Virus record (IMG/VR): IMGVR_UViG_3300036829_000047
Span: 1-34,227 of that record
DNA from: a virus
Reading direction: 5' to 3' (one strand)
DNA: 34,227 nucleotides
Positions 9,828-34,227 of the stretch are shown here, piece after piece (position 1 is the stretch's first letter; each line of letters begins with the position of its first letter). A model generated the notes under the pieces. It had not been told where the DNA came from. It did not search any database and saw nothing but the letters and a program-made list of their open reading frames with translations. The translations under genes and the position numbers were made by a program.

Positions 9828-10157
9828 ATGCCGAACGGCCAATGGCGCGGCAGCACGAGACGCGACCGTCTCCCGGCCGACTGGCCGCAGCGATGCGCCG
9901 CCGTCCGCGAGCTCTACGGCACCGCGTGCTACATCTGCAGCCACGGCGGTGCCAGTGATACCGACCATGTCCAGCGCGGCGACGACCACCAGCTATCCAA
10001 CCTGCGGCCGGTCTGCGGCGCCCGCTGCCAGCTGTGCCGGGCCGAAGGCCGCACGCCATGCCACGTCGTCAAGTCGTCCCGTGAGGGCGGCATCGCCGCG
10101 CAGGCGGCCAAGCCAAAGCGCAGCCGTCCGGCTGAGCGCCATCCCGGAATGAGGTGA
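9828..10157 (+). CDS. HNH endonuclease, packaging-associated
   Basis: A 109-residue protein; the ATG at 9828 is chosen for its GGAG (9818-9821) and because MPNGQWRGSTRRDRLPADWP is the usual N-terminus of terminase-linked HNH proteins. The longer upstream frame would read through the hairpin. The core is CYICSHGGASDTDHV (Asp-His of the beta-beta-alpha metal motif), then LSNLRPVCG with the conserved Asn, and CHVVKSSREGG. HNH proteins beside terminase genes stimulate the maturation cut in cos phages such as HK97, which fits its place before terS. A stretch with an additional CQLC inserted before CHVVK is unusual. Confidence 0.85.
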   Translation: MPNGQWRGSTRRDRLPADWPQRCAAVRELYGTACYICSHGGASDTDHVQRGDDHQLSNLRPVCGARCQLCRAEGRTPCHVVKSSREGGIAAQAAKPKRSRPAERHPGMR

Positions 10158-10159
10158 CC

Positions 10160-10366
10160 ATGGTCAAGAAGAGTCCAGGCCCATTCCACTCGCGCAAGCA
10201 GCAGTCGTACGTCTACGGCGTGCTCGCCAAGCGCAACCCGAAGGTGAAGACGTGGGCCAAGCGGTGGGCCACGGCAGTCGGCGAGACAGGGCCGCACGGC
10301 AACAAGGCATCGTCCGCCGCGTGGCACGCACTGCCAGCGCGCAAGGGAATCAGGAAGCGAGCGTAA
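10160..10366 (+). CDS. Small basic protein (68 aa)
   Basis: The ATG at 10160 is preferred over a GTG at 10154 because GAGGTG sits just upstream. The protein is Lys/Arg-rich: SPGPFHSRKQQSYVYGVLAK, then KVKTWAKRWA and PARKGIRKRA. The composition suggests nucleic acid or ribosome contact, or a virion-associated basic peptide. It lies between the HNH gene and terS. No family was recognised. Confidence 0.55.
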   Translation: MVKKSPGPFHSRKQQSYVYGVLAKRNPKVKTWAKRWATAVGETGPHGNKASSAAWHALPARKGIRKRA

Positions 10367-10368
10367 CC

Positions 10369-10515
10369 ATGGCCGCGAAGAAGATGGGCAAGCCGATGGT
10401 CAAGGGTGCAGCCAAGGGTGCAGCCAGCCCCAAGTTCGGCAGCCCGGCATGGCAAGCCAAGTACGGCGTCAAGCGGTCGCCGAAGCTGGCCAAGGCCAAG
10501 CGCAAGAGCATGTGA
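10369..10515 (+). CDS. Small Lys-rich protein (48 aa)
   Basis: An ATG at 10369, two bases after the preceding stop, with AGGAAG upstream. The 48 residues contain about a quarter Lys/Arg, beginning MAAKKMGKPMVKGAAKGAAS and ending LAKAKRKSM. An 11-12-base direct repeat (AAGGGTGCAGCC twice, around 10401-10424) encodes the KGAAKGAA segment. Its chemistry and position match the preceding basic protein; the two could be a histone-like or head-associated pair. Function unknown. Confidence 0.5.
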   Translation: MAAKKMGKPMVKGAAKGAASPKFGSPAWQAKYGVKRSPKLAKAKRKSM

Positions 10516-10712
10516 CGGCAGCCTGCCGCACCTGATACAACCGTAGCCAGCCGCGAACGGGGGGTCGATACCCCTCCCCCCCGCCTTTGCCCCCATCCGG
10601 CCCGGTATAGCAAGCGCCGGTCGCTACGGGTTTTGAAGCCCACGAGTAATCAACGCTCACGCGGAGTAGCCGCACGGCCATTCCGCAGTTCCTGCACAGG
10701 ATGGAGCACGCA
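10516..10712 (+). other. Non-coding gap before terS, possible cos region
   Basis: About 197 bases without a gene. The most striking element is G-run/C-run DNA at 10559-10582: GGGGGG, then TCGATA, then CCCCTCCCCCC(C), with a GGGGT-CGAT-ACCCC palindrome at its core. In cos phages of actinobacteria the cohesive ends usually lie just upstream of the small terminase gene, often near an HNH gene and in GC-rich palindromic sequence. That is the basis for this suggestion; the exact nick positions cannot be read from sequence. Confidence 0.35.
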
Positions 10713-11147
10713 ATGGGAACCAGAGGTCCGGTCCCGAAGCGCTCGTCCGAGCGCCGGAGGGTCAACAAGCCGGAGACGCCGATCACCTCGGCTCCGTCGG
10801 CCGCGCGCTCGCAGCAGCGGCGGCCGTCGGCGGACCGCACGTGGCATCCGATCGCCCGCGGCATGTTCGACTCGCTCGCCAAGTCTGGCCAGGCCGCGTT
10901 CTTCGAGCCGTCAGACTGGCAGACGGCACGCCTGGCGGCCGAGGCCACGCACCGGCTGCTGACGGCGGAGAAGTTCAGCGCCATGCTGCTGTCCGCTGTC
11001 GATGCGATGTGGGCCCGGCTGCTGATGACGGAGGCTGACCGGCGGCGCCTGCGTATCGAGCTGGAGAAGCCGGACGACGGGTCTGAGCAGGCCGAGTATG
11101 ACGCGAAGGTGGCGCGGATGGCTGCCTATCGCAAGCCTCGTGCCTAG
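10713..11147 (+). CDS. terS: Phage terminase small subunit
   Basis: A 144-residue protein; the ATG at 10713 has GGAG at 10703-10706, better than the ATG at 10701. It opens MGTRGPVPKRSSERRRVNKP, the P27-type small terminase N-terminus (G-x-R-G-P-x-P-K-x-S), followed by helices and a conserved-looking SDWQTARLAAEATHRLL segment. Small terminases form rings that recognise packaging sites and load DNA to the large subunit. The large subunit gene follows, overlapping by a few bases. Confidence 0.85.
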   Translation: MGTRGPVPKRSSERRRVNKPETPITSAPSAARSQQRRPSADRTWHPIARGMFDSLAKSGQAAFFEPSDWQTARLAAEATHRLLTAEKFSAMLLSAVDAMWARLLMTEADRRRLRIELEKPDDGSEQAEYDAKVARMAAYRKPRA

Positions 11148-12783
11148 CACGCTGCCGGACTGGGACGACAGCAAGGGAAAGACGCTCGGCTGGCATATCA
11201 CGGAGTGGGCCGAGGAGTTCCTGATCCAGCCGGACGGCCCTAATGCGGGCGAGCCGTGGCGCTGGTCGGAGCCGCAGCTGAATTTCGTGCTGTGGTTCTA
11301 TGCGGTTGACGATGACCTGCGGCTGAAGTTCCGTCGTGCGGCCCAGCGGTGGTCGAAGGGCCGGGGCAAGTCTCCGGAGGCTGCGGCGCTGTCGCTGATC
11401 GAGCTGTGCGGCCCGGTGGTCCCGGATTACATCGGCGACTGCGGGCGGGACTGCGAGGTCCGGCACGGGTTCGCGCACGGCAGGCCGCACGCGATGCCGT
11501 GGGTGCAGATCGCGGCGACGGCCGAGGATCAGACGGTCAACACGATGGCCATGATCCTGGGGATGTGCGCTCCCGGCTCGAAGCTGGTCACGAAGTACGG
11601 CCTGGACGTCGGCAAGACGATCATTTACAGGCCCGGCGGCGGACGGCTGCACGTCATCACGTCGTCGGCGCGGGCAGCTGAGGGCGGCCGTCCGACGTTC
11701 GTGAACCTGGACGAGGTCCAGGAGTGGCAGCAGGCGAACGGCGGGCATGCCCTGGCGTATGCGATCCGCCGGAACCTGGCGAAGACGGGCGGCCGGTCAC
11801 TGGAGACGGGCAACGCGCACGAGCCGGGGCTTGACTCCGTCAGCGAGCGGACGCTTGAGGCGTGGCAGGCGCAGCAGGAAGGGCGTACCCGCGGCGACGG
11901 CATCCTGATGGACTGCACCGAGTCGCCCGCAGACACGGACATGGCCGACTACGACAGCCTCAAGGCCGGGCTGGCGGAAGCCTATAAGGGCGCCGACTGG
12001 ATTGACCTTGACCGGCTCATCGGCGAGATCTGGGATCCGGACACGCCGCCGGACGTGGCCCGCCGCTACTACCTGAATCAGGTGACGGCGTCGGACGACG
12101 CGTGGTGCGCCCCGCACGAGATCAAGGCACTGGCCGATCCGGAGCATGTGGTGCCGGACGGCGCGCCGATCGTGCTGTTCTTCGACGGCTCGAAGTCCGA
12201 TGACGCTACGGGCCTGGTCGGATGCGAGATGAAGACGGGCCACGTGTTCGTGCTCGGCGCGTGGGAGCCGCACGGCAGCGGCGGGGATGTGCCGGTCGCG
12301 GAAGTCGACCGCGCGGTCGACGCGGCCTTCGAGCGGTACGAGGTCATCGCGTTCTTCGCGGACGTCCGGGAGTGGGAGCAGTCGGTCAAGGTGGCGTGGC
12401 CGGAGCGGCATGGCGCCGGCCTGCTCGTGCACGCGGTGCCGGGCGGCAAGTCGCCGGAGCCGATCGCGTGGGACATGCGGACGAAGGTCTTCGACTTCAC
12501 CACGGCGTGTGAGCTGACGCTTGCGGAGATTCAGGAGCGGTCGTTCACGCATGACGGCGATTCGCGGCTCGTGCGGCATGTGGTCAACGCGCACCGGCGG
12601 CCGAACCGCTACGGCGTGTCGATCGGCAAGGAGTCGCGGATGTCGGCCCGGAAGATCGACCTCGCGGTGTGCATGATCGGGGCGCGGATGGTGCGCCGGA
12701 TCGCAATGAGCGACCAGAAGTGGCAGCGCCGCCTGCGGCGGCTGGCCAGAGCCGGAAAGGGAAGGGCGGTGGTGCTCTCGTGA
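11140..12783 (+). CDS. terL: Phage terminase large subunit
   Basis: An ATPase/nuclease that pumps DNA into the prohead. The Walker A variant WSKGRGKSPEAAALS lies near residue 70 (GRGKS in place of the longer loop), Walker B FVNLDEVQEW near 187-196, and the RNaseH-like nuclease starts near 345 with IVLFFDGSKSDDATGLV, then IAFFADVREWEQ, then an Asp near the C-terminus (KIDLAVCMIGA). The GTG at 11140 is chosen since the residues from an alternative ATG at 11098 are Arg/Trp-rich shadow of terS. This gives 547 residues, a typical length. It is GTGA-coupled to the portal gene. Confidence 0.9.
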   Translation: MPSTLPDWDDSKGKTLGWHITEWAEEFLIQPDGPNAGEPWRWSEPQLNFVLWFYAVDDDLRLKFRRAAQRWSKGRGKSPEAAALSLIELCGPVVPDYIGDCGRDCEVRHGFAHGRPHAMPWVQIAATAEDQTVNTMAMILGMCAPGSKLVTKYGLDVGKTIIYRPGGGRLHVITSSARAAEGGRPTFVNLDEVQEWQQANGGHALAYAIRRNLAKTGGRSLETGNAHEPGLDSVSERTLEAWQAQQEGRTRGDGILMDCTESPADTDMADYDSLKAGLAEAYKGADWIDLDRLIGEIWDPDTPPDVARRYYLNQVTASDDAWCAPHEIKALADPEHVVPDGAPIVLFFDGSKSDDATGLVGCEMKTGHVFVLGAWEPHGSGGDVPVAEVDRAVDAAFERYEVIAFFADVREWEQSVKVAWPERHGAGLLVHAVPGGKSPEPIAWDMRTKVFDFTTACELTLAEIQERSFTHDGDSRLVRHVVNAHRRPNRYGVSIGKESRMSARKIDLAVCMIGARMVRRIAMSDQKWQRRLRRLARAGKGRAVVLS

Positions 12784-14297
12784 TCATCCCGGAGATGCTC
12801 ATGCTGAGCGTCGTCTCTGCCGACCTGTCCGACGATGAGCAGGAGCTCGTCAACCATCTGCAGTGGCGGCTGAGCGAGTCGTGGCCGTTCCTCGGCAGGC
12901 TCGAGGAGTACTACGACGGCGAGCAGCGCATGCAGAACCTCGGCATCGCCGTGCCGCCGGAGCTGCACGCGCTGCGCACCGCGGCGGGCTGGCCGGGCGT
13001 CGTCGTCGACACGATCGACGAGCGTCTCGACGTGCAGGGGTTCCGGCTCGGCTCGTCGCCGGACGCTGACGACGACATGTGGAACATCTGGACGCATAAC
13101 CGGATGGACCACGACAGCGGCCTGGCGCACCTGGACGCGCTGATGTACGGCCGGTCGTTCGTCATGGCCGGAACGAGCGATGACAGCTCGGGGATGCCGC
13201 TCATCACGGTTGAATCACCGCTGAACATGGCGGCGATCTTCGATCCGGCGACGCACCGCGTCACGTCGGCGCTGCAGCTGTACCAGTTCTTCGGCGACGC
13301 CGCGGCGGCGCTGTACCTGCCTGATCAGACGGTGCACCTGGTCAACCCGGGCGGCAAGGGCTGGCAGGTCCGCGAGCGCGACGAGCACAATCTGGGCCGC
13401 TGCCCGGTGGTGATGCTGACGAACCGGAGCCGCGCGAACGACCGCTACGGCCGCAGCGAGATCACGCCGGAAGTCATGTCGTGGACGGATGCGGCGTGCC
13501 GGACGCTGCTGGGCATGGAGATTGCCCGCGAGTTCTTCGCCGCCCCGCAGCGGTACATCATCGGCGCGTCCGAGTCGGCGTTCATGGATGCCGACGGCAA
13601 CCCGAAGTCGGCGTGGGAAACCTACATCGGCCGCGTCCTGGCGCTCGAGGCCGACGAGGAAGGCAACCTTCCGCAAGTCGGCCAGTTCAGCATGGGCAGC
13701 CCGCAGGCGTTCACTGATCAGCTGAAGTCGCTATCTCAGCTCGTGTCGGCGCGCACGGGCGTCCCCCAGCACCTGCTGGGCTGGTCGACGGATAACCCGG
13801 CGTCGGCTGACGGCATCCTCGCCGCTGAAAGCGCGCTGAACCGGCGCGCCCGGCGCCGCCAGCGCAGTTTCGGGCCGCAGTGGTCCGAAGTGCAGCAGCT
13901 GGCGCTGACGATCGCGAACAACGGCCATCTGCCGCCGGACGCGCACCAGATCGAGGCCCTGTGGATGCCGCCGGAGACGCCGACGCCGACGGAAACGAGC
14001 GCGGCGATCCTGTCGCAGGTCCAGAGCGGCGCCGTGCCGCCGGTCAGCGACGTGATCTTGTCGAGGCTGGGCTACACGCCGATGGAAATCCAGCGCCTGG
14101 ACGCCGACCGGAAGCGCGCGGTGGCGAGCACGGACCTGGCGGCGGTCGCGTCGGCCCTGTCGGCGGCGGGGTTGCGCCAGCAACTCACGATGGACGCCAC
14201 CGAGGCGGAACATGGCGGCAGCGTCCCCGCTCCGCCGCCTCCGGCCCGCGCGCAGCCTGCCGTCCAGCCTGCGCAGCCCGCAAATGGCCGCGGCTGA
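12780..14297 (+). CDS. Portal protein, SPP1 gp6-like
   Basis: A 505-residue protein from a GTG that overlaps the terL stop. It forms the dodecameric ring at the capsid vertex through which DNA passes. The features of the SPP1 Gp6-like family are present: an N-terminal YYDGEQRMQNLGIAVPPEL segment, VVVDTIDERLDVQGF, a central NRSRANDRYGRSEI followed by a helix-rich MEIAREFFAAPQRY, and the stem/crown region GVPQHLLGWSTDNPASADGI. The C-terminal tail is Pro/Ala-rich. It lies between terL and the minor capsid gene, the standard order. Confidence 0.9.
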   Translation: MIIPEMLMLSVVSADLSDDEQELVNHLQWRLSESWPFLGRLEEYYDGEQRMQNLGIAVPPELHALRTAAGWPGVVVDTIDERLDVQGFRLGSSPDADDDMWNIWTHNRMDHDSGLAHLDALMYGRSFVMAGTSDDSSGMPLITVESPLNMAAIFDPATHRVTSALQLYQFFGDAAAALYLPDQTVHLVNPGGKGWQVRERDEHNLGRCPVVMLTNRSRANDRYGRSEITPEVMSWTDAACRTLLGMEIAREFFAAPQRYIIGASESAFMDADGNPKSAWETYIGRVLALEADEEGNLPQVGQFSMGSPQAFTDQLKSLSQLVSARTGVPQHLLGWSTDNPASADGILAAESALNRRARRRQRSFGPQWSEVQQLALTIANNGHLPPDAHQIEALWMPPETPTPTETSAAILSQVQSGAVPPVSDVILSRLGYTPMEIQRLDADRKRAVASTDLAAVASALSAAGLRQQLTMDATEAEHGGSVPAPPPPARAQPAVQPAQPANGRG

Positions 14298-14970
14298 CCA
14301 GCAGGCGGCGCAGGTCGCGGTCGCCGATCACCTGTCCGCGCAGGTTTCGGCCGCCTGGAGTGCCCTGCTGCACGTCGGCGCGCTGAAACTGACGCTCCCG
14401 CGGCTGTCGGTGGCGGTCGCGGCGCTCGTGCACCAGTATGGCCGCGCGTCGGCCGCGCTGGCGGTGCACTACTACGAGGAACGGCGCCTCGAGGCAGGAG
14501 TTACCGGCAAGTTCACGCCTGTCCCGGCAGATCCGGCGTCCGCTGACGCCGTCGATGAGGCTGTGAGGTGGGCTACGCGGGACCTGTGGTCGCGTCAGCC
14601 GGACGTGACGGCCGCCCGCAGGTCGGTGCAGGCGGTCTCGGAGAAGCTCGCGCTCGACACTGGCCGCGACACGGTCATCGGCGCCGTGCACGCCGACCGG
14701 AAGGCGCGCGGCTGGGCGCGGGTCACCGAGCCGGGAGCCTGCTACTTCTGCGCGATGCTCGCGACGCGCGGGATGGCCTACCGGTCGGAGAAGACAGCGG
14801 ATTTCCGGTCGCACGACCACTGCCGCTGCCACGCCGAACCGGTGTTCACGGCTTACGAGCCGTCAGCGCAGATCCGGGAATGGCAGGCGCTCTGGCACGG
14901 CAGCACGCGCGGCCACAGCGGCAAGGCCGCGATCAAGGCTTTCCGGCAGGAATACGAGGGCCGGAAGTAA
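14284..14970 (+). CDS. VG15/MuF-like minor capsid protein
   Basis: About 228 residues, or 252 if the upstream ATG at 14212 is used. That ATG has a GAGG, but its first 24 residues look like a shadow of the portal tail. The C-terminal half has GACYFCAMLATRGMAYRSE, then SHDHCRCHAEPVF, a Cys/His pattern of the VG15/MuF-like minor head proteins found after the portal in actinophages. Such proteins are thought to be injected or to sit at the portal vertex. No Ser or Asp protease motif is evident. The next gene is the scaffold. Confidence 0.75.
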   Translation: MAAADQQAAQVAVADHLSAQVSAAWSALLHVGALKLTLPRLSVAVAALVHQYGRASAALAVHYYEERRLEAGVTGKFTPVPADPASADAVDEAVRWATRDLWSRQPDVTAARRSVQAVSEKLALDTGRDTVIGAVHADRKARGWARVTEPGACYFCAMLATRGMAYRSEKTADFRSHDHCRCHAEPVFTAYEPSAQIREWQALWHGSTRGHSGKAAIKAFRQEYEGRK

Positions 14971-15012
14971 TGCCCCGCACGGGGCGACGAACCATCCGCA
15001 CGGAGGGTTGCA

Positions 15013-15636
15013 ATGCCGGATAACGGCGAAGGTCAGCAGGATCAGGGCCAGCAGCAGGACGGCCAGGAGCCGGAGGGCCAGCAGGACGGTGGCCAGCAGG
15101 GGGACGGCGGAAAGCCGGAGCCTAAGCAGGACGCGACCGATTGGAAGGCGGCTGCCCGCAAGTGGGAGACGCGCGCCAAGGAAAACGCAGCTGCGGCTAA
15201 GAAGCTGGCCGACATCGAGGCGGCCAACCAGACGGCGCAGGAACGCGCCGAGGCCGCAGCCAAGGTGGCTGAGGAGCGCGCCACGGCGGCGCTTCACAGG
15301 GCGGCGACGGCGGACCTCCGCGCGGCGCTGACCGGCATCGTGCCGGATCCGGCCGCGGTCGTCGATGACCTCAACATCAGCCGCTTTCTCGGCGCTGACG
15401 GCGAGGTTGACGCGGACAAGGTCGCGGCGCTCACGGCGAAGTACACGGCGCTCGCGCCGCCACCGGGCCCGCGCGCCCCGAATCCGAATCCCGGCCAGGG
15501 CAACGGCCGTCAGCCGCAGACGATCGCCGAGCAGCTGGCGGGGCTCGAGCTGAAGCCGGGCGACCGCGCGGCGACGAGACAGTCTCTCAATCTCAAGTCA
15601 AAGCAACTGGCGCAGCTGCGCCAGAACATGGGCTAG
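15013..15636 (+). CDS. Capsid scaffolding protein
   Basis: A 207-residue protein with an excellent RBS (GGAGGG about 6 bases before the ATG). The first 40 residues are Gln/Gly/Asp/Glu-rich and disordered. Residues 43-105 are a long Ala/Glu/Lys helix (KAAARKWETRAKENAAAAKK, then LADIEAANQTAQERAEAAAK) typical of phage scaffolds. The C-terminus is basic and ends KSKQLAQLRQNMG. Scaffolds direct prohead assembly and leave before maturation. It lies directly before the major capsid gene, the expected order. A small GCCCCG/CGGGGC hairpin at 14972-14985 lies in the upstream gap. Confidence 0.85.
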   Translation: MPDNGEGQQDQGQQQDGQEPEGQQDGGQQGDGGKPEPKQDATDWKAAARKWETRAKENAAAAKKLADIEAANQTAQERAEAAAKVAEERATAALHRAATADLRAALTGIVPDPAAVVDDLNISRFLGADGEVDADKVAALTAKYTALAPPPGPRAPNPNPGQGNGRQPQTIAEQLAGLELKPGDRAATRQSLNLKSKQLAQLRQNMG

Positions 15637-15670
15637 GCGAGTGCCGGCCCGGAACGAGAAAGGATAGGCG

Positions 15671-16630
15671 ATGGCCGCAGTTTCTGGCGTCGGCACCACC
15701 TACAACCTGCCGAACTACCACGGTGAGCTGTTCACCGTGAGCCCGGTCGATACTCCGTTCCTGTCCGCCATCGGCGGCATCAACGGCGCGAAGACCGTCC
15801 ACTCCAAGACGTGGGAGTGGCAGACGATCGACCGGCGCTCGAGCTCGGCGAACAACGCGGCACTGGAGGGCCAGGCGGCTCCGTCGGGCACCGCGCGGAG
15901 CCGGGCGAACGTCTCCAACATCACCGAGATTCACCACTCGGCGATCGAGGTGTCCTACTCCAAGCTGGCAGCTACCGGCCAGTACGCGGGCCAGAACGTG
16001 TCCGCGGAGTGGGATGACGCCGTCATCGACGAAATCCAGCTTCAGACTCAGGCTGAGCTGCAGTCGATGGGCGTCGACATCGAGCAGTCGTTCCTCAACG
16101 GCACGCTGCACGTACCGGCCGACAACACGACGGCGCGCGCTACGCAGGGCATCCTCGGCGCGATCGCCACGAGCGTGGTGGCGGCCGGGGGTGCGGTGAC
16201 AACGGCGATGGTGGACGCGCTGCTGCAGGACATGTACGGCGCGGGCGCGCCGCTCATGCAGGAGTCGACGGTGTTCCTCGGGAACGCGCAGACGGCTCAG
16301 GCGCTGAGCGACGTCTACGCGGCCAGTTCGCAGTTGTCCGCTCCTACGCGGGACCGCACCGTGGGCGGCATGGCCATCAAGACGATCACGACCTTGTACG
16401 GGGATTTCGGCGTCATGATGGACCGCCACATGCCCGCGGGCGTGCTGGCGCTCGTCGACCTCGCCGCGTGCTACCCGGTGTTCACCGAGATCCCGCAGAA
16501 GGGCGTGCTGTTCGTCGAGCCGCTCGCCAAGACCGGCGCGACGGAGAAGTACCAGCTGTACGGCGAGATCGGCCTCGAGTACGGCCCGGAGACCTACCAC
16601 GGCAAGATCACCGGGATCACGTTCTCCTGA
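15671..16630 (+). CDS. Major capsid protein, SU10-like family
   Basis: A 319-residue HK97-fold protein. The start MAAVSGVGTTYNLPNYHGEL followed by FTVSPVDTPFLSAIGG is the SU10/DUF5309-type N-terminus. The remainder shows KTWEWQTIDRRSSSANNAALEG, a long helix (EWDDAVIDEIQLQTQAELQS) that is the likely spine helix, and a C-terminal P-domain ending in the GEIGLEYGPETYHGKITGI segment. No long delta domain is evident, so scaffolding is supplied by the separate upstream protein. RBS is AAAGGA. Confidence 0.88.
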   Translation: MAAVSGVGTTYNLPNYHGELFTVSPVDTPFLSAIGGINGAKTVHSKTWEWQTIDRRSSSANNAALEGQAAPSGTARSRANVSNITEIHHSAIEVSYSKLAATGQYAGQNVSAEWDDAVIDEIQLQTQAELQSMGVDIEQSFLNGTLHVPADNTTARATQGILGAIATSVVAAGGAVTTAMVDALLQDMYGAGAPLMQESTVFLGNAQTAQALSDVYAASSQLSAPTRDRTVGGMAIKTITTLYGDFGVMMDRHMPAGVLALVDLAACYPVFTEIPQKGVLFVEPLAKTGATEKYQLYGEIGLEYGPETYHGKITGITFS

Positions 16631-19665: not shown

Positions 19666-19666
19666 C

Positions 19667-26842: not shown

Positions 26843-26849
26843 GAGGACC

Positions 26850-27407: not shown

Positions 27408-27430
27408 CCAAGTGAGAGACGGGGGCGAGC

Positions 27431-27757: not shown

Positions 27758-28219
27758 ATGAAACGGTGGGCACACAGGTCCGCCACGGCCGGCGCGGTGG
27801 CCGTCATCACGGGCGCGGGCATGGCCGCGACGGCGATCATCCAGCACAACACCGACCAGTCCGCCAGGCCGCCCGTTGCCGCGCCGGCGCGCCCGTCCGT
27901 CACGCCCCGCAGCACATCGCCGCCTGCCGCACCGCAGCCGTCCAGGACGCCCGCAGGACGCCGCTCCGCGCCGCCGTCCGGCACGACTCCCTCGAGCGCC
28001 CCGGCTGCGCCAGGCGTGCCCGTGCTGGCCGCCGGGCTCGGCACCGGGGCGGCCCGCGCCGCAGCCGCAGCCGCCACGACAGCGCCGCCTGCGCCATCGC
28101 CGCGGCCGACGTCGCCCCGGCCGTCATCACCCGCGCCGACGTCGCCGTCGTGCCTCGCCGGCGTGCGCGCACTCACCATCAGCGCATGCATCAGGATCGG
28201 AGAGACCACCAGCCCATGA
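27758..28219 (+). CDS. Pro/Ala-rich secreted or membrane-anchored protein of the lysis cassette
   Basis: A 153-residue protein with GGAGGG upstream and ATG next to the previous TGA. An N-terminal hydrophobic segment after KRWAHR (ATAGAVAVITGAGMAATAII) acts as a signal or anchor. The rest is almost pure Pro/Ala/Ser/Thr with a short Cys-containing C-terminus (SCLAGVRALTISACIRIGET). Such cell-wall-spanning linkers fit a lysis cassette (spanin-like or holin-partner). The overlap with the endolysin gene (ATGA) argues for co-translation. Function not proven. Confidence 0.6.
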   Translation: MKRWAHRSATAGAVAVITGAGMAATAIIQHNTDQSARPPVAAPARPSVTPRSTSPPAAPQPSRTPAGRRSAPPSGTTPSSAPAAPGVPVLAAGLGTGAARAAAAAATTAPPAPSPRPTSPRPSSPAPTSPSCLAGVRALTISACIRIGETTSP

Positions 28220-28962
28220 CCCGCCTCATGTACGACGGCGTCCGCTCGCTCGCCGCCGGCATTCACCATTCGTTCCCGAACGCCGCAATGGTCGCCGGGT
28301 ACGACAACGGCCTCTATGCCTGGACGACTGCGGAATGGAACCTGTTCCCGCACGCCGTCAAGGTCCACATCTCGATCACGGCGAGCGCCAACACCGGCGA
28401 CGTCCTGGACGTCGAGCAGGGCGACGCGACACCCGCGCAGGCTAAGGCGTGGATCGAGATGCGCAAGCGCGCCGGACTGTACCGGCCCACGATCTACTGT
28501 TCCCGCTCGGTGATCCCGGCCGTGCGGCAGGCCACCGGGAACCTGGTGCTCGGCCGGGATTATGACATCTGGGCCGCCGACTACACCGGCCAGCCGCACC
28601 AGGTTGTTGCGCCCGGGACGCCTTCCGCCCTGTGCGCGGCCACGCAGTACATCAACACCACCGGCTACGACGCGAGCGTCGTCTATGACGACGGCTGGCC
28701 GCACCGCAGCGCCCCGAAACCGCCAGCGCCGAAGCCGGACCCAGCGCCCGCGCCGGCATCGCAACCGAAGGAGACACCCGAAATGATCATCCTGCGCACG
28801 AAGGTCAACGGCGCGGTCGTGACCTTCCTCTACGGCGCCGGAGGCTGCCGGCACATCACCAACCCCGAGAATCAGGCCGCGCTTGCCAAGGTGCTGCCGG
28901 TCGTCGACGTGACGGAAGACCAGGTTGTCAAGTGCAACGGTGGCAGCCTGCCGCCGATGTAG
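28216..28962 (+). CDS. GH25-like endolysin
   Basis: A 248-residue protein. Residues 1-160 fit a glycoside-hydrolase TIM-barrel of the GH25/DUF1906-like group: MVAGYDNGLYAWTTAEWNLF, VLDVEQGDATPAQAKAWIEM (Asp-x-Glu pair as in GH25 active sites), RRPTIYCSRS-type strand (YRPTIYCSRSVIPAVRQATG), DYDIWAADYTGQP. A Pro/Ala/Lys linker (about 172-190) leads to a short C-terminal domain (MIILRTKVNGAVVTFLYGAG) that may bind the wall. It should cut peptidoglycan at lysis. There is no signal peptide, so it needs the holin-like partner. A strong terminator follows at 28980. Confidence 0.75.
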   Translation: MTRLMYDGVRSLAAGIHHSFPNAAMVAGYDNGLYAWTTAEWNLFPHAVKVHISITASANTGDVLDVEQGDATPAQAKAWIEMRKRAGLYRPTIYCSRSVIPAVRQATGNLVLGRDYDIWAADYTGQPHQVVAPGTPSALCAATQYINTTGYDASVVYDDGWPHRSAPKPPAPKPDPAPAPASQPKETPEMIILRTKVNGAVVTFLYGAGGCRHITNPENQAALAKVLPVVDVTEDQVVKCNGGSLPPM

Positions 28963-28979
28963 GCACTATCCAGATAGCC

Positions 28980-29016
28980 GAAAGCCCCCCGCGCCACATA
29001 AGCGCGGGGGGCTTTC
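28980..29016 (+). terminator. Strong bidirectional terminator between convergent operons
   Basis: A perfect 15-bp stem: GAAAGCCCCCCGCGC at 28980-28994 with GCGCGGGGGGCTTTC at 29002-29016, loop CACATAA. The CTTTC end gives a partial U-run on the plus strand and the mirror-image GAAAG gives it on the minus strand. It lies between the endolysin gene (plus) and the DUF2637-like gene (minus), so it would stop transcription from both the phage late operon and the conjugation operon. Confidence 0.88.
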
Positions 29017-29052
29017 GTCGTGCCCGCTACATGCCTATGATCTCGATGACGC

Positions 29053-29904
29053 TCATTCAGCCTCGGTGCCCTCGGACACGAGACCGGCGTACTCCTGCTT
29101 GCGGAGCTGCCCCCAGCGCTTGCTCATGCCGCATTCCTCGCCGAGGTCGGCACCGCTGATGTCGGGTCGCTCGTCGAGGATCTTCAGTGCCTCAGTCCGT
29201 GCGTCGACGTCGTTCGGTACCTTCCCGCCGGCGTTCTTGCGCCTCCCGGATGCGCCCTTCGTGCGCGCACCCTTCGCCCGCGCATGCGTCTCCAGTTTGC
29301 GCGCAAGATTCGCGGCGTTCGCTTCCGCGTCTGCGCGCACCCGTTCGGCTTCCGTGCGCGCATCGTTCGCCGCATCGAGTTCGGCGCGGAGGGCGCTCGC
29401 GCGGGCGTCGCGCGCCTGCTTCAGCGCCCCGATCTCGGACAGCAGCGACGCCTCCCGTCCGGCTCGCGCGGTCTCCTCGGCCGCGGCGTGACGGCTGACG
29501 TCGGCGGCGGTCGGGCCGTTGAGGATGAAGTGCACGGCGAGCAGCGCCGCGGCGTCCAGCAGCACGCCGAACAGCCATGCCATGTGCCCCGGCGTCGCGT
29601 GCAGCACCACGGCGCCGGTCGCCGCGGCCGACAGGTACATCGAGCCGCCCATGATCAGGTACGCGGCGGTGACGGCCCACCACCGGGCGCCCTCCCATTT
29701 GGAGACGAACTCCAGGATGCACATGGAGATCAGCAGCGGGACGACGCCCTCGAGGACCGCAAGCGGCACGGGCATCTGGCCGAAGCGGATGGAGTGGTAG
29801 ACCTGGAATGTCATCGTGGTCGCGGCCATGCTGATGGCGACGGTCCAGGCGCAGAACTTCGCGCGGGCGACCGCGCGGGCCTTCACGGCTTGATTCGCAT
29901 CCAT
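29053..29904 (-). CDS. DUF2637/Spd-like membrane protein of the conjugation module
   Basis: A 283-residue protein. The start at 29904 is chosen because an AGGAG lies about 10 bases upstream; ATGs at 29913 and 29955 are poorer. Four hydrophobic helices occupy residues 15-130 (CAWTVAISMAATTMTFQVYH, VPLAVLEGVVPLLISMCILE, WWAVTAAYLIMGGSMYLSAA, WLFGVLLDAAALLAVHFILN). A long Ala/Arg/Glu coiled coil (about 140-220) and a C-terminal domain follow. DUF2637-like proteins occur next to the transfer gene in AICEs and Streptomyces plasmids and are thought to aid intramycelial spread. Confidence 0.7.
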   Translation of the reverse strand: MDANQAVKARAVARAKFCAWTVAISMAATTMTFQVYHSIRFGQMPVPLAVLEGVVPLLISMCILEFVSKWEGARWWAVTAAYLIMGGSMYLSAAATGAVVLHATPGHMAWLFGVLLDAAALLAVHFILNGPTAADVSRHAAAEETARAGREASLLSEIGALKQARDARASALRAELDAANDARTEAERVRADAEANAANLARKLETHARAKGARTKGASGRRKNAGGKVPNDVDARTEALKILDERPDISGADLGEECGMSKRWGQLRKQEYAGLVSEGTEAE

Positions 29905-29981
29905 GGGTGTCATGCTCCTGTCCGGGCAGAGGTGCGGGGGGATTTTGTGACGCATGCCTGTTTTGTCCGAAGTGCGGCCGG

Positions 29982-30072: not shown

Positions 30073-30083
30073 CGCGGGCCGGG

Positions 30084-32216
30084 TCAGGCAGCATCGTCGG
30101 CGTCCTCGTCGAGAGTGTCGTCATCTGCCGCGAACTCGGCCAGGACGTAGCGGGCGGCGGTGGTGCTGCCGGTGACGGCGATGTGCTCCTGGTCCCGGAG
30201 GATGACGAGCCAGCGCTTGAGAGTGCTGCGCGGGATCTCGGTGTGCGCGATGAGATCGCTGAGCCGCGCCCCGTTCTCGCCGCGGCGCTGAAGGAGGCCC
30301 AGTATCGGCCCGGAGATGCGGGCGGGGACGGCAATGGCCCGGTTCGCGGCCGGGGAGTTGCCCTCAGCACCGTCGATCGCGTCGCGGGCGGCGATGAGGT
30401 CGGCGATCTGAACGGGCGGGTCGGTCGGCCCGGGCATGCCGGCGAGGCGCTCGGCGACGTCCTCGGCGAGTTCGGTGAGGCGGGCGATGGGCTCGCCCTG
30501 GCGCTGCACGGGCTGCACGGCCGCGGTCGCGCTGCCCGCTGCGGGGGCGTGTGTGTCATGGCGGCCCGCGTAGCCGGCCAGCGCTGCGGCGATAGCAGGC
30601 GGGATGGCCGCCGTGGGGCGGCCGCGCCGCTTGGCGAGGGCCATGACCTGATCGAAGTCGTGCAGGTCGCGGACCCGGCCGGCTTTCCAGGTGCCGTCCG
30701 GGCCGACGACGAGGGCGACGCCCTTCACGCCCTGCGCGTAGGTGGCCATGTCCGGCATGCCCAGCAGTTCCCAGTCGGATATGAGGTTGCCCAGCTCGTG
30801 GCCCTGGTTGAGGCGCAACGCGATCTTGTTCCCGGCGTTGGCGTGCAGGTCCTTGTTGCCGGTGTACTGCACCACGGCGCGCTGCCCGGCGTAGGCGAGG
30901 CCGACGCCAGCGGACCGGCCGCCCTTGAGAATGTCGCCGACGGGCTCCTTGGCCTTGTGCGCGATCGGGGAATTCGCGCCGAGCAGGGTGTCGCCCTCAT
31001 CCAGGATGATCAGGATGGCCGGGTCTTCGGGCGTGGGGACGTGGTTCCGCCCGCCGCTGCGGGCGGAACGCTGCCGGATGATCTCGGCGCCCCATTCCAC
31101 GATCTTCAGCGCCTTGTCGTATTCGGGGACGCCGTCGGGTGACAGGCCCGCGCGGGCGTCGAGGGCGTCGCCCCACAGGAACGGGATAGTGCCCTTGCGC
31201 AGGTCGATCGCCCAGACGAGGGTGTCCCTGCGGCCGGTGTAGTCCTCGATGATGTTGGAGTAGGTGGTGGTTTTCCCGCCGCCGGTCGCGGCGAGCATAC
31301 TGGTGTGCCAGGCGCCCTGGTCGTCGTAGACGTTCAGGGTAAGGTCCCCCCCGGTGTCAGGGTCGGCGCCGAGGACCAGGGGGCCGTCCATGATGGAGCG
31401 GCGCGCCGCCGCGTGCGCGGGGTTGAGCGCGGGGTGAGTGACGTCCCCGTCCCACGGATCGTTCATCTGCACGGTGATGATGACGTTCCCGGCGTGCCTC
31501 GTGTCGGTGACGACGCGGACGCGCTCGGCGGGCAGCGAGAGGACGGCGGCGATCTTCTCGTCCAGGTCGCCGTGCGCGAGTTTCGTCGCAGAGGAGCCGG
31601 TGCCGCGGATGTCGACGGTGAACTCCTGGCCGGTGCGGGTGTCCTTCTCGCGGACCAGGTGGCTGCCTTCCAGGCCCGCGGCGGCGGCGACGGTCTGCCA
31701 GCGGGCGCGCTTGGCTTTCAGGGCCCGGCGGTGCTTCATCACGTCTGACCAGGTGATGGCGGACCACCCCGCGGCTGCGGCGCCCGTGTAGCCGAGCAGT
31801 ACCGGAAGATCCGTGACCCCGGTCGCGGCGGCGGTGGCCAGCCACGCCGGCACCCCGGCCGCCAGTGAGGCGGCGGTCGCGGAGTACCAGCGGGAGCCGT
31901 GCGTCTTGTGCGTGCTGACCCATGCGGCTGCGGCAGCGGGCGGCCCGAACAAGCCGAGCATGAGCGGGTCCGCGTGGACGGCGTAGCCGATCGCCCCGGC
32001 CGGGTACAGCGCGGTCATAGCCGTGCCGAGGCCGCGTGTCTCCGGCTTCTCGGCGACCCAGCGGACGTAGCCGCCGACAGCGCGCCCTGCCGCGCGTGCC
32101 GCGCCGGAACTTCCCGTGCCCCCGGTGTCCCGGGCGTTCCGGGTGTTCCGGTCACGGGTGTACGGACCCCAGGCGACGGCCTGGGGGCCCTGCTCGCTGC
32201 GGCGGCCGAGGGTCAC
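30084..32216 (-). CDS. FtsK/SpoIIIE-type DNA translocase, TraB-like conjugation protein
   Basis: A 710-residue protein from a GTG with AGGAGG eight bases upstream. The N-terminus is basic, followed by hydrophobic helices at about 63-160 (TALYPAGAIGYAV, AATGVTDLPVLLGYTGAAAA). Walker A ATGGGKTTTYSNI is near 308-320, Walker B AILIILDEGDTLL near 398-410. The C-terminus (about 635-700: GPILGLLQRRGENGARLSDL, IPRSTLKRWLVILRDQEHI) is a winged helix, like the DNA-recognition gamma domain of FtsK and TraB. TraB-type proteins move double-stranded plasmid DNA between mycelial cells. AICE context and single-gene architecture favour transfer over chromosome segregation. The 13-bp repeats just downstream are a candidate target. 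Confidence 0.85.
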   Translation of the reverse strand: MTLGRRSEQGPQAVAWGPYTRDRNTRNARDTGGTGSSGAARAAGRAVGGYVRWVAEKPETRGLGTAMTALYPAGAIGYAVHADPLMLGLFGPPAAAAAWVSTHKTHGSRWYSATAASLAAGVPAWLATAAATGVTDLPVLLGYTGAAAAGWSAITWSDVMKHRRALKAKRARWQTVAAAAGLEGSHLVREKDTRTGQEFTVDIRGTGSSATKLAHGDLDEKIAAVLSLPAERVRVVTDTRHAGNVIITVQMNDPWDGDVTHPALNPAHAAARRSIMDGPLVLGADPDTGGDLTLNVYDDQGAWHTSMLAATGGGKTTTYSNIIEDYTGRRDTLVWAIDLRKGTIPFLWGDALDARAGLSPDGVPEYDKALKIVEWGAEIIRQRSARSGGRNHVPTPEDPAILIILDEGDTLLGANSPIAHKAKEPVGDILKGGRSAGVGLAYAGQRAVVQYTGNKDLHANAGNKIALRLNQGHELGNLISDWELLGMPDMATYAQGVKGVALVVGPDGTWKAGRVRDLHDFDQVMALAKRRGRPTAAIPPAIAAALAGYAGRHDTHAPAAGSATAAVQPVQRQGEPIARLTELAEDVAERLAGMPGPTDPPVQIADLIAARDAIDGAEGNSPAANRAIAVPARISGPILGLLQRRGENGARLSDLIAHTEIPRSTLKRWLVILRDQEHIAVTGSTTAARYVLAEFAADDDTLDEDADDAA

Positions 32217-32246
32217 GGTCAGTTCCTCCTAACGGTGATGCGGTGG

Positions 32247-32549
32247 TCAGGCCGCGTCCTGGCCGGTGAAGTGCATGCCGCGGGCGGCGACCTCACGGGC
32301 GTCCTCGAACTCGTCCTCGAACGCCTTCGCGGACTGCGAGGCGCCGGTAGCGGCCTCTTTGATTCCCTCGCTGACCTGCTGCAGCGGGTTCGTCACCGAC
32401 GACGGCAGCTTCCGGGCACCCAGGTCGGCGGCCCACTCGCCGAGCTGCTCGGCGAGCGACTTGAGCACGTCGGCGATCTGGGTGATGGTCTCCAGGAATT
32501 CGCCGTCCGTCGTCGGGGGCTCCAGGTTCAGGGTGTATCGCTGGGTCAT
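32247..32549 (-). CDS. Possible separate C-terminal product from an internal start
   Basis: Inside the 272-residue frame an ATG at 32549 (MTQRYTLNLEPPTTDGEFLE) is preceded by AGAGGAGA at good spacing, as strong as the RBS of the full-length gene. It would give a 100-residue, acidic helical protein corresponding to the C-terminal domain, separated from the membrane part by the Pro-rich linker. Either this is an in-frame second product, or the true organisation is two genes fused by readthrough. Sequence alone cannot decide. Confidence 0.4.
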   Translation of the reverse strand: MTQRYTLNLEPPTTDGEFLETITQIADVLKSLAEQLGEWAADLGARKLPSSVTNPLQQVSEGIKEAATGASQSAKAFEDEFEDAREVAARGMHFTGQDAA

Positions 32550-33065
32550 GTTGGTTCTCCTCTGCTGCGCCCCGGCCGGGGCGGTTACTTGCGGGTTCAC
32601 CGGCGCCGGGTCCGTCCCGGTACCGGAGTTATCGGGGCCGGGCACGGGTGCCAGGGGGCTGCCGGGAGCGCCTTGACGCGGTGTCCGGCGCCCGGGGTCT
32701 GTGACCTTCACCGGGGTTGCGTTGGCAGCCTGCGGGGCGCTGCCGCCGCTGCCGTTGTTCTCCGTGTCGCGCGGGTCACCGCGCCACATGAGCGGGATCA
32801 GGGGACGGCGGTTCTTGCCGAGGCGCCCTATGCCGGAGACAGCGCCGCGCCCGGCGAACTTGGCGGCCTTACCAGAACCCCGCGTGCCGGCGGCGATGCC
32901 GCGCCCGGTCAGGCCGCCGAGGCGCCCGGAGTGGTGCTGCGCGGCCTTGCGGGGGGTCCGCCAGCCGGTCGCCTGGTGTGCGGAGCGGATGAAGTTGCGG
33001 CCCGACTTGGTGAAGGCGGTCATGACGGCGACGATGAACAGGATCGCCAGCACTTCACCGCCCAT
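32247..33065 (-). CDS. Membrane-anchored Gly/Pro-rich protein of the transfer operon
   Basis: A 272-residue protein; GAGGAGG precedes its ATG at 33065. One N-terminal hydrophobic helix (GGEVLAILFIVAVMTAF) is followed by a basic Gly/Arg region (HHSGRLGGLTGRGIAAGTRG, GRGAVSGIGRLGKNRRP), a long Pro/Gly/Asn linker, and a helical C-terminal domain (LETITQIADVLKSLAEQLGE, FEDEFEDAREVAARGMHF). Proteins of this composition appear upstream of FtsK-like transfer genes in AICEs. It overlaps the upstream gene by eleven bases. Function not known; a role in the transfer complex is inferred from position. Confidence 0.65.
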   Translation of the reverse strand: MGGEVLAILFIVAVMTAFTKSGRNFIRSAHQATGWRTPRKAAQHHSGRLGGLTGRGIAAGTRGSGKAAKFAGRGAVSGIGRLGKNRRPLIPLMWRGDPRDTENNGSGGSAPQAANATPVKVTDPGRRTPRQGAPGSPLAPVPGPDNSGTGTDPAPVNPQVTAPAGAQQRRTNMTQRYTLNLEPPTTDGEFLETITQIADVLKSLAEQLGEWAADLGARKLPSSVTNPLQQVSEGIKEAATGASQSAKAFEDEFEDAREVAARGMHFTGQDAA

Positions 33066-33360
33066 CGCAGTCCTCCTCGCCGTCGGCGCCGGGCTCGCCG
33101 CGGCGCGGCAGGAAGCGGACCGCCATGTACTCCGCGGCAGCCGCGGCCACGGTGGTGGCCGGGATGGCGACGGCCATGGTCAGTGCGGTGGCGACCGGGG
33201 ACAGGTTCACGATGAACCGCAGCGCGACCGCGGACGCGAGGTACACCAGCCAGTTCAGGGCCCTGGGCGGCCAGTTGGAGCGCAGCACGGCAGCGAAGCC
33301 GGGGGGTGCCTCATCGGGGGCATCTTCCGCGCCGGGGACGGGCAGGTGATGCAGGGTCAT
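33055..33360 (-). CDS. Small two-TM membrane protein
   Basis: A 101-residue protein starting at an ATG (33360) with GGAG nine bases upstream. After a Pro-rich N-terminus it has hydrophobic helices WLVYLASAVALRFIVNL and ALTMAVAIPATTVAAAAAEY, then a charged tail (RRGEPGADGEEDCDGR). It lies in the transfer operon and is coupled to the downstream gene. Resembles Spd-type or transfer-complex membrane proteins in composition only. Confidence 0.6.
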   Translation of the reverse strand: MTLHHLPVPGAEDAPDEAPPGFAAVLRSNWPPRALNWLVYLASAVALRFIVNLSPVATALTMAVAIPATTVAAAAAEYMAVRFLPRRGEPGADGEEDCDGR

Positions 33361-33375
33361 GACAGGTGTCTCCGA

Positions 33376-33555
33376 TCAGAACAGGTGGGCAAGCGACGCC
33401 GACAGGGACGCCAGCCACATGGCCGGGATGTGCCCGATCGGGGTGTTGGCGGCCAGGAGTCCCCAGCTGGTCAGGATGACGAGTTCGGCCCAGCCGGTGA
33501 TGTGTTGCCAGATGAAGATGGCCACCACGCCGGTCAGGAGGACGAGGAGAATCAC
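33376..33555 (-). CDS. Small hydrophobic membrane protein (59 aa)
   Basis: GTG start at 33555 with AAAGGA seven bases upstream. The 59 residues are almost all hydrophobic (VILLVLLTGVVAIFIWQHIT, ELVILTSWGLLAANTP, AMWLASLSASLAHLF) and form two or three membrane segments. Too short for most gene callers, but it fills the gap between the WhiB and the next membrane gene with proper signals. Likely another Spd-like small membrane protein. Confidence 0.65.
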   Translation of the reverse strand: MILLVLLTGVVAIFIWQHITGWAELVILTSWGLLAANTPIGHIPAMWLASLSASLAHLF

Positions 33556-33571
33556 GGAAGGTTCCTTTCTG

Positions 33572-33892
33572 TTACGCGGCTTCTGCTAGCCGCTGCTTCT
33601 GCTTCTCGCGGTCGCGCAGGATCTTCCGGCGCTCCCGCTCGCTCTTTCCGCCCCAGATCCCGAAGCGGTCCGCGTTCTCCAGCGCGTATTCAAGGCACGG
33701 CTGCCGTACGGGGCAGCGCATGCAGATCCGCTTCGCCGGGCTCGAGTCGCCGCCCTTCGCCGGAAACCAAGCCTCTGGATCAGCGGTCGCGCACTGCGCG
33801 GCGTCCTGCCAGTCGGCCTCTGACCGCTCCTCAGCGGCGAGCAGCGAGCCGGACGCTCCGGGGCTGAACTCCAGGGTGCTCCGGGCCTTCAC
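33572..33892 (-). CDS. WhiB-family iron-sulfur transcriptional regulator
   Basis: A 106-residue protein with the four Fe-S cysteines at 34, 57, 60 and 66 (CxxC at ICMRCP, then CLEYAL), the invariant GIWGG turn at 78-82 and a basic C-terminal segment (KSERERRKILRDREKQKQRL) for DNA binding. WhiB-like proteins are found only in actinobacteria and their phages and work with the principal sigma factor to regulate promoters. Its place at the head of the transfer operon suggests control of transfer or of the element life cycle. It overlaps the upstream gene by GTGA. Confidence 0.93.
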   Translation of the reverse strand: MKARSTLEFSPGASGSLLAAEERSEADWQDAAQCATADPEAWFPAKGGDSSPAKRICMRCPVRQPCLEYALENADRFGIWGGKSERERRKILRDREKQKQRLAEAA

Positions 33893-34089
33893 GCCGTCGC
33901 CCCAGTTCCCGCGGTCGTGACGCTTGTCCCGGCCAGGAAGGGGCGGTCCGCCTCGTGCTCGACGATGATCATCGTGCCGCCCGGGCCGGCCTGAACGGAC
34001 CAGTTGATGCCAGGCGTGTCGGCGTGGGCGCGGGTCCAGCGGGACATGTCCTGCCTGGTGTTGATGTGCGTGACGAAGGTGGGGTTCAC
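33889..34089 (-). CDS. Small hypothetical protein (66 aa)
   Basis: GTG start overlapping the upstream stop (GTGA), ending in a GTGA overlap with the WhiB gene. It contains MSRWTRAHADTPGINWSVQA and IIVEHEADRPF, a small alpha/beta pattern without a recognisable motif. Retained on the overlaps at both ends and its place in a conserved-looking operon. Function unknown. Confidence 0.55.
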   Translation of the reverse strand: MNPTFVTHINTRQDMSRWTRAHADTPGINWSVQAGPGGTMIIVEHEADRPFLAGTSVTTAGTGATA

Positions 34090-34227
34090 GCCGGCACCTC
34101 GCTCAGTCCCCGCAGCTCGGACAGCAGCGCGCGGGCGTCAGACTCGCGATAGCGGCGATGGCCGCCCGCGGTGCGTACGGCGGCGATCTTCCCGGCGTCA
34201 GCCCAGTCCTTCAGGGTGCTCCGCGGC
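34086..34227 (-). CDS. BldC/MerR-like helix-turn-helix protein (N-terminus outside the window)
   Basis: Reading in from the window edge, the frame gives PRSTLKDWADAGKIAAVRTA, GGHRRYRESDARALL, then a short tail and TGA. This is the MerR/BldC-type winged helix: (S/T)TLKxWAxxGKI, RTxGGHRRY. Such proteins are small DNA-binding regulators or excisionases often found at the head of AICE and phage operons. The first ten or more residues are beyond the window. The last codons overlap the next gene by GTGA. Confidence 0.82.
   Translation of the reverse strand, partial: PRSTLKDWADAGKIAAVRTAGGHRRYRESDARALLSELRGLSEVPA

What the first reader, a model, noticed from the sequence alone, without database searches (positions are those of the whole stretch)
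9828..34227. Siphophage structural genome joined to an actinobacterial conjugation cassette
A full set of siphovirus packaging, capsid, tail and lysis genes converges, across one strong terminator, on an opposite-strand operon (HTH, WhiB, small membrane proteins, TraB/FtsK-like translocase, DUF2637-like protein) that has the composition of the AICE/Streptomyces plasmid transfer module. In AICEs the DUF2637 gene is usually followed by replication, excisionase and integrase genes; here it abuts the phage lysis genes. If both modules work, the element has two routes of spread: virions and double-stranded mycelial transfer. Streptomyces plasmid-phages with transfer genes are known in outline, but I cannot tell whether this combination has been described.
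Basis: partly seen in the sequence, partly recalled or inferred. Interest (0 to 1): 0.82.

Follow-up and report, generated by a model that had tools for sequence, protein, structure and literature searches.

The report
Actinophage carrying a conjugation module
A virus of soil actinobacteria appears to carry, within its own genome, genes and a DNA address tag like those that conjugative elements use to pass double-stranded DNA between cells, so it may spread both as particles and by mating.

Summary
The observation largely holds, with corrections. The window is a 34,227-base fragment of a temperate-type siphophage with an SU10-type capsid; phage genes start at its left end, not at 9828. A minus-strand operon converges on the late genes. 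Its 710-aa translocase has long homologues (33-52% identity) in four AICE-like elements (integrative conjugative elements of actinomycetes) among 394 genomes searched; in three of the four, WhiB, the 272-aa protein and the translocase keep the same order. New: a repeat array just 3' of the translocase gene (three direct copies 13 bases apart, then two inverted) is unique in layout within the window, and all four AICE homologues have arrays of like layout there, with other motifs. It looks like a clt, the site TraB grips. The neighbouring 300-aa membrane protein is not detectably DUF2637. The objection 'a separate AICE next door' is weakened by three related or similar elements that look complete (two contigs with overlapping ends, one circular 'plasmid'), where a translocase and DUF2637 operon converges on phage late genes. 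Phages that are also transmissible plasmids are known (pZL12); this form is a new variant. Transfer and binding are untested.

The parts
1759..2952 (+). YqaJ/RecE-type recombination exonuclease (phage early region)
   Evidence: phrog_434 1.1e-63; PF09588 5.5e-18
2949..4091 (+). RecT-type annealing protein
   Evidence: phrog_148 2e-42; PF03837 1.1e-21
4791..5609 (+). phage replication initiator
   Evidence: phrog_2447 1.7e-52; no Pfam or NCBIfam match
10701..11147 (+). small terminase
   Evidence: PF25673 1.3e-41; PHROGs calls the same family a minor tail protein (phrog_226)
11098..12783 (+). large terminase
   Evidence: phrog_9 7.4e-65; no Pfam match
12669..14297 (+). portal, SPP1 type
   Evidence: phrog_104 1.8e-143; PF05133 1.6e-24
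14212..15636 (+). head maturation protease (14212-14970) and scaffold (15013-15636)
   Evidence: phrog_193, phrog_4708
15671..16630 (+). major capsid protein, SU10 type
   Evidence: PF17236 1.6e-69; phrog_1328
16676..18968 (+). head-tail adaptor, head closure, neck, tail terminator, major tail protein
   Evidence: phrog_137, 501, 387, 123, 476
19667..26842 (+). tape measure (19667-22315), beta-helix tail protein (22491-24122), conserved tail-region protein (24119-26842)
   Evidence: phrog_305 5.6e-37; PF13229 7.1e-18; phrog_5313 1.1e-165, function unknown
27667..28962 (+). ORF holding a probable GH25-type endolysin in its C-terminal half
   Evidence: PF01183 E 0.009, below cut-off
28979..29017 (.). 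hairpin between the convergent modules
   Evidence: fold of 28963-29052, -41.9 kcal/mol, z -4.9; coordinates counted from its dot-bracket
29053..29955 (-). 300-aa membrane protein: membrane helices, coiled coil, C-terminal HTH; Spd/DUF2637-like in architecture only
   Evidence: three hydrophobic stretches, model with four N-terminal helices, long coil and HTH; no PF10935
29983..30080 (.). candidate clt: 3 copies of an AGCTTGGCTCACC-like unit 13 bp apart plus 2 inverted copies of CTTGGCTCAC
30084..32216 (-). TraB/FtsK-type DNA translocase, 710 aa: Walker A at residue 309, C-terminal winged-helix-like end
   Evidence: long AICE homologues 33-52%; FtsK/HerA by profile
32247..33065 (-). 272-aa protein, syntenic in three AICE-like elements
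   Evidence: 36-37% identity
33055..33360 (-). 101-aa protein, one hydrophobic stretch
33376..33555 (-). 59-aa membrane protein
   Evidence: 53% counterpart beside the G209 translocase
33572..33892 (-). WhiB-like regulator
   Evidence: PF02467 7.5e-24
33889..34089 (-). 66-aa ORF, no assignment
   Evidence: nothing above a curated cut-off
34086..34226 (-). MerR/BldC-type HTH, cut by the contig end
   Evidence: NF033787 7.2e-13, below cut-off; PF13411 over cut-off

Best explanation
The window is a fragment of a temperate-type actinophage (about 42-44 kb if like its relatives) whose genome includes an AICE-type transfer module for double-stranded DNA. Shown: the phage genes; homology of the translocase to AICE TraB-type proteins; shared gene order; a repeat array of like layout 3' of the translocase gene in the phage and in four AICE-like elements. 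Inferred from work on pSVH1 and pWTY27: the winged-helix end of the translocase recognises the array (clt), a hexamer assembles there at the membrane and pumps the circular phage genome as dsDNA into a neighbouring hypha, while the small membrane proteins and the 300-aa protein help it spread across septa. Most likely this serves the quiescent state (prophage or plasmid), since the operon is read against the late genes across a hairpin. The element would then have two routes of spread: virions and mating.
For: Translocase homologues with integrase (PF00589 in 4 of 4, two of them under the cut-off), GntR (4 of 4) and Prim-Pol (the 2 scanned) genes in their elements. Array: direct-then-inverted order in 0 of 2000 shuffles and only at this locus in the window; 0-1 of 2000 in each of 4 AICEs. 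pWTY27 clt = 3' end of traA plus 159 bp with direct and inverted repeats; pSVH1 TraB reads 8-bp repeats through its winged helix (PMC3583192, PMC4170104, passages). Related phages with translocases: G003, G023, G038, JH14, G058. Operon codon usage is closer to phage early genes (0.167) than early is to late (0.294).
Against: Fragment: integrase, att site and state unknown. PF01580 and curated TraB models do not accept the translocase (29 against 800 bits). Its membrane stretches are weak (none at the 1.6 threshold, three at 1.1) and its structure model is useless. The 300-aa protein has no convincing homologue (3 of 394 genomes with partial matches, best E 3.6e-4). By plain copy number the array is less special (0.5-1.9% of record windows do as well), and some other phage translocases lack a clear array.
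Confidence: 0.68

Rival explanations
1. The translocase and its membrane proteins do not mediate mating but spread or partition the phage genome between compartments of one mycelium (or into spores), using the same clt-like site.
For: Spd proteins of Streptomyces plasmids act in spread within the mycelium and interact with TraB (PMC4170104, passages); the operon has several small membrane proteins.
Against: The nearest translocases are in elements with an integrase and replication genes, the make-up of AICEs, whose Tra acts between mycelia (PMC3218068, passages). The two roles are not exclusive.
Confidence: 0.16
2. The operon belongs to a separate AICE or chromosomal region that merely adjoins a prophage, or the contig is a chimera.
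For: The window's flanks are unseen; AICE relatives carry no phage structural genes that match the window.
Against: G003 (127-base end overlap), G058 (95-base end overlap) and circular pPaSha2 have a translocase plus DUF2637 operon convergent with phage late genes inside one element. The operon stops at the hairpin 91 bases from the late genes without the integrase and replication genes that follow the translocase in the AICEs.
Confidence: 0.08
3. The repeat array is a regulatory operator or replication iteron, and the module is decayed cargo or serves regulation.
For: Iterons also have direct and inverted repeats (pWTY27 has both kinds of site); HTH and WhiB regulators are in the operon.
Against: The array lies 3' of the translocase gene in the phage and in all 4 AICE-like elements; the motif differs where the translocase's recognition helix differs (n = 5, three of them close relatives). 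The operon ORFs are open with a coding-type GC pattern.
Confidence: 0.08

Closest known systems
AICEs (actinomycete integrative and conjugative elements) with TraB-type translocases
   Same: Translocase homology (33-52%), WhiB / 272-aa / translocase order, clt-like array 3' of the translocase gene
   Different: The phage has capsid, tail and terminase genes and a phage replication initiator; no AICE replication gene was seen; the integrase is outside the fragment or absent
Streptomyces plasmid-phage pZL12 / phage ZL12 (NC_013420)
   Same: Phage and transmissible plasmid in one element; [quoted passage not shown] Its record also has an FtsK-like gene (gp71) with a membrane protein and a GntR gene nearby
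   Different: 90.4 kb, with ParA/ParB; window proteins find only a weak WhiB-like match in it; gp71 is a weak match (E 8.7e-8 to the phage/plasmid profile, none to the window/AICE profile) and has no repeat array in the 175 bases 3' of it. The pZL12 paper itself was not read
pPaSha2 (CP052773.1, Pseudonocardia alni)
   Same: Circular 41.9-kb element with phage late genes convergent on an FtsK plus DUF2637 operon with an integrase
   Different: Capsid of the HK97-type Phage_capsid family (PF05065 1.7e-12), a different translocase branch, no clear 3' array
FtsK-like translocases of large Streptomyces phages (58 records, StarPlatinum and relatives)
   Same: FtsK-type motor, 23-28% identity over 32-49% of the protein in the 40 records listed
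   Different: About 126-134-kb phages; in the one region read (MindFlayer) no DUF2637 protein is annotated beside it

Membership tests
AICE | FtsK/SpoIIIE-type Tra protein | tested here: met
   Long homologues in four AICE-like elements and FtsK/HerA by profile; but PF01580, the model used by Ghinet et al. (PMC3218068), does not match
AICE | Replication protein of RepSA, RepAM or Prim-Pol type | tested here: not met
   The proteins scanned with Pfam gave no Prim-Pol or DUF3631; RepSA has no Pfam model and was not tested; the initiator present is a phage family. The missing part of the genome is unseen
AICE | Integrase | tested here: inconclusive
   None among the window proteins scanned; fragment
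AICE / Streptomyces conjugative plasmid | clt with repeated short motifs near tra | tested here: inconclusive
   Array of like layout present; binding not tested
DUF2637 (PF10935) | Match to the family model | tested here: not met
   No match at E 10 for 29053-29955; hhalign 1.8%
SU10-capsid siphophage | SU10-type capsid with terminase, portal and long-tail genes | tested here: met
   PF17236 1.6e-69, tape measure, major tail protein
phage-plasmid | Stable extrachromosomal replication as a plasmid | not testable with these tools
   Fragment. G058 and pPaSha2 look circular in isolate assemblies
NCBIfam plasmid_TraB (NF041214) | Score over the curated cut-off | tested here: not met
   29.3 bits against 800; AICE homologue of G209 38.7 bits

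The most novel reading that the evidence does not exclude
Actinophages of at least two capsid types (SU10 and the HK97-type Phage_capsid family) have repeatedly taken up TraB-type transfer modules, often into the slot between late and lysogeny genes, forming a class of elements of about 42-44 kb that spread both as virions and, through a phage-borne clt, as double-stranded DNA between mycelia; the clt motif changes with the translocase's recognition helix while the array layout stays fixed.
Probability: 0.35. Interest if true: 0.8.

Novelty: new variant of a known kind. Interest (0 to 1): 0.62.

Why it matters
If it works, one element can lyse a host and leave as a virion, or stay quiescent and pass through the mycelium or to a neighbour by mating, and its translocase might also move host DNA. 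It makes directly testable whether phages use dsDNA conjugation, points to a named isolate with a related complete-looking element (Allonocardiopsis opalescens DSM 45601), and offers five translocase/array pairs for working out how TraB reads its DNA address.

Tried and rejected
Housekeeping FtsK: rejected, the four long homologues lie in AICE-like elements. DUF2637 membership of the 300-aa protein: not supported. Near DNA relatives of 10000-34227 among the phage and plasmid records: none. Translocase relatives by single-protein scans of viral and genome contigs: none confirmed; by a Walker A pattern: 0; by alignment: one weak partial match, L234; in 11 capsid relatives by BLAST: 0. Structure of the translocase: model useless (mean pLDDT 37), so no fold search was run. 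Rfam families and tRNAs: none. G043 and G047 have a DUF2637 gene downstream of the capsid gene, but no translocase was found in the regions fetched. The one paper on the pPaSha2 strain that I opened has no 'pPaSha' and no FtsK in its text (PMC8928166, term search and passages). Papers: ten searches; their listings showed no description of an SU10-capsid phage with TraB and clt. Most hits were seen as listings only, and subscription journals are mostly not held.
Full report
What the record is. The window is the whole of a 34,227-base virus record (G000) without end repeats, so probably a fragment. It has no tRNA and no Rfam match at gathering thresholds, and 10000-34227 has no near DNA match among 50,697 phage and 72,556 plasmid records. 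Phage genes run on + from the left: exonuclease, RecT and replication initiator, then small and large terminase, SPP1-type portal, protease, scaffold, SU10-type capsid (PF17236, 1.6e-69), connectors, tail terminator, major tail protein, a tail-assembly chaperone in two frames, tape measure and tail proteins. The endolysin is a weak GH25 match and no holin was identified. A hairpin (fold of 90 nt, -41.9 kcal/mol, z -4.9) separates this from a convergent minus-strand operon.

The minus-strand operon. In its own direction: MerR/BldC-type HTH (cut by the end), 66 aa, WhiB, 59- and 101-aa proteins, 272 aa, a 710-aa translocase, a 300-aa protein. The translocase matches phage FtsK/SpoIIIE-like families and plasmid TraB weakly and PF01580 not at all. 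In 394 genomes drawn evenly from one class (centre: Streptomyces sp. JH14), 15 had a match at E 1e-5; four long matches in three genomes stood out (52, 52, 48 and 33% identity). All four lie in AICE-like elements: a phage-integrase match is found in 4 of 4 (two of them under Pfam's cut-off), GntR in 4 of 4, and Prim-Pol in the two scanned for it (G427 contig 69, G365). In the 40-80 kb fetched around each, the window proteins that match at 1e-3 are the translocase, WhiB, the 272-aa and the 59-aa proteins, and no phage structural protein. Three of the four keep the order WhiB, 272-aa protein, translocase; the fourth (G209) keeps WhiB, a 59-aa counterpart, translocase. A profile of the five translocases finds FtsK and HerA among solved structures (E 5e-4 to 7e-3), and, more weakly, ABC transporters.

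The candidate clt. Between the translocase stop and the next ORF (128 bases) stand three direct copies of an AGCTTGGCTCACC-like unit 13 bp apart and two inverted copies of CTTGGCTCAC (Tandem Repeats Finder: 3.2 copies of 13 bp). The middle direct copy has a mismatch; the tests below use exact words. With 8-mers the window has 2 direct and 2 inverted copies: as many copies in 2 of 2000 dinucleotide shuffles, the direct-then-inverted order in 0 of 2000. In the whole window, 36 of 13,622 overlapping 175-nt windows (both strands) have that order, all at this place. The four AICE homologues have arrays of like layout within about 110 bases of the translocase stop (AACTGTCC in three, AATGTCCC in one; order in 0-1 of 2000 shuffles). 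Offsets in bases after the stop codon: 13, 26 (mismatch), 39 | 78, 92 in the phage; 14, 27, 40 | 83, 98 in G365; 19, 32 | 76, 84 in G209. Results less favourable: by copy number alone the phage array is matched by 0.5% (8-mers) or 1.9% (7-mers) of windows in the record, and one AICE array by 11.6% of windows in its locus (7-mers); a self-complementary word at about 29251-29390 reaches the same count of four. Among other translocases, G038 has an ordered 7-mer array (0 of 2000), G003, G023, JH14 and the plasmid CP108827 have counts seen in 4-59 of 2000 shuffles without the order, G058 is not significant (124 of 2000), and pPaSha2 and CP109237 show none. Recognition-helix residues differ between the window, the three AACTGTCC elements (near alike) and G209, as their motifs do (n = 5, not independent). 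pWTY27's clt, mapped by deletion and footprint, is the 3' end of traA plus 159 bp with direct and inverted repeats, and pSVH1 TraB reads 8-bp repeats through its winged helix (PMC3583192 and PMC4170104, passages).

Is the operon part of the phage? Of 50 records searched for DUF2637 (50 of 55 intended), 21 matched; seven have it within 35 kb of the capsid gene on the same contig: G003, G015 (below cut-off), G038, G043, G046, G047, G058. Of 34 virus records searched with PF01580, six matched at 0.01 and four over the cut-off (G003, G023, G037, G038); the window is missed by this model, so the count is a lower bound. A profile of phage/plasmid translocases also found JH14 and G058 among 13 prophage-bearing genomes whose flanks I fetched. 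Profile-profile comparison links this branch to the window/AICE branch (97.8%, E 9e-13, 317 columns). G003, 43.8 kb with a 127-base end overlap, has the SU10-type capsid, late genes, then on - the translocase and a DUF2637 protein (PF10935 2e-11), with divergent regulator-like HTH genes (read by eye) and a serine integrase. G058 (Allonocardiopsis opalescens, NZ_PVZC01000016.1, 42,222 bases, 95-base end overlap) has an HTH-like gene, tyrosine integrase, 265 aa, DUF2637 (1e-9) and translocase in one direction, convergent with the lysis end. That such end overlaps mean circular contigs is recalled practice. In JH14 and G023 the translocase lies on the capsid strand instead, with a neighbouring membrane-type protein that matches no Pfam family. 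pPaSha2 (41.9 kb, circular, deposited as a plasmid) has a Phage_capsid-family capsid (PF05065) and a convergent FtsK plus DUF2637 operon with an integrase. The G003 translocase is 61% identical over 70% to that of a 13.5-kb Streptomyces plasmid with spdB, Prim-Pol, DUF3631, GntR and integrase genes, an AICE-like set.

Mechanism and limits. For Streptomyces plasmids and AICEs an FtsK-like Tra protein is reported to bind clt and move dsDNA, with Spd proteins aiding spread (passages). By homology and layout I infer the same here, acting in the quiescent state. Not shown: integrase, attachment site, prophage or plasmid state, binding, transfer, particles. Spread within one mycelium is a live alternative or addition. 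The 300-aa protein is assigned by architecture only (single-sequence model, mean pLDDT 69, pTM 0.29, HTH part 85-89; three hydrophobic stretches at the 1.6 threshold).

Comparison and novelty. A phage that is also a transmissible plasmid is known from Streptomyces: pZL12. I read its record's annotation and citing passages, not the paper. It too has an FtsK-like gene with a membrane-protein and a GntR gene nearby, so the broad idea is not new. It differs in size, in having ParA/ParB, in lacking sequence matches to the window beyond a weak WhiB hit, and in lacking an array 3' of its FtsK gene. I therefore call this a new variant of a known kind. On checking, the integrase and GntR statements were put on Pfam results and the pZL12 comparison was extended; the odds for the novel case are unchanged.

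Noticed in passing
L235:1972-11180 (G013, IMGVR_UViG_3300044899_000013, capsid 60% identical to the window's): An opposite-strand operon on a related phage contig looks type-IV-secretion-like: an 834-aa ATPase (PF12846 2e-18; TcpF-like 3.3e-15, far below its cut-off) and an FtsK-like 527-aa protein (PF01580 below cut-off). Perhaps a second conjugation type on this phage group, or an adjoining ICE.
   Followed up: partly
L243 (CP052773.1, pPaSha2): A record deposited as a plasmid is a complete phage-like genome with an integrase, FtsK and DUF2637 operon.
   Followed up: partly
window 18866-19665: The tail-assembly chaperone matches lie in two separate ORFs of the same family (phrog_2624, N- and C-terminal parts), as with a programmed frameshift.
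   Followed up: no
window 21362-21834: The tape measure gene holds 132-base internal repeats (44 codons), at least four copies.
   Followed up: no
   Followed up: partly
G037 (IMGVR_UViG_3300037760_000114), 3961-4293: A 104-kb virus record with an SU10-type capsid also has a PF01580 match over the cut-off; region fetched but not examined.
   Followed up: no
L248:10658-19959 (phage ZL12, record 58658-67959): ZL12's gp71 is annotated as FtsK/SpoIIIE-like and lies in a block with a membrane-like protein (gp73) and a divergent GntR gene.
   Followed up: partly
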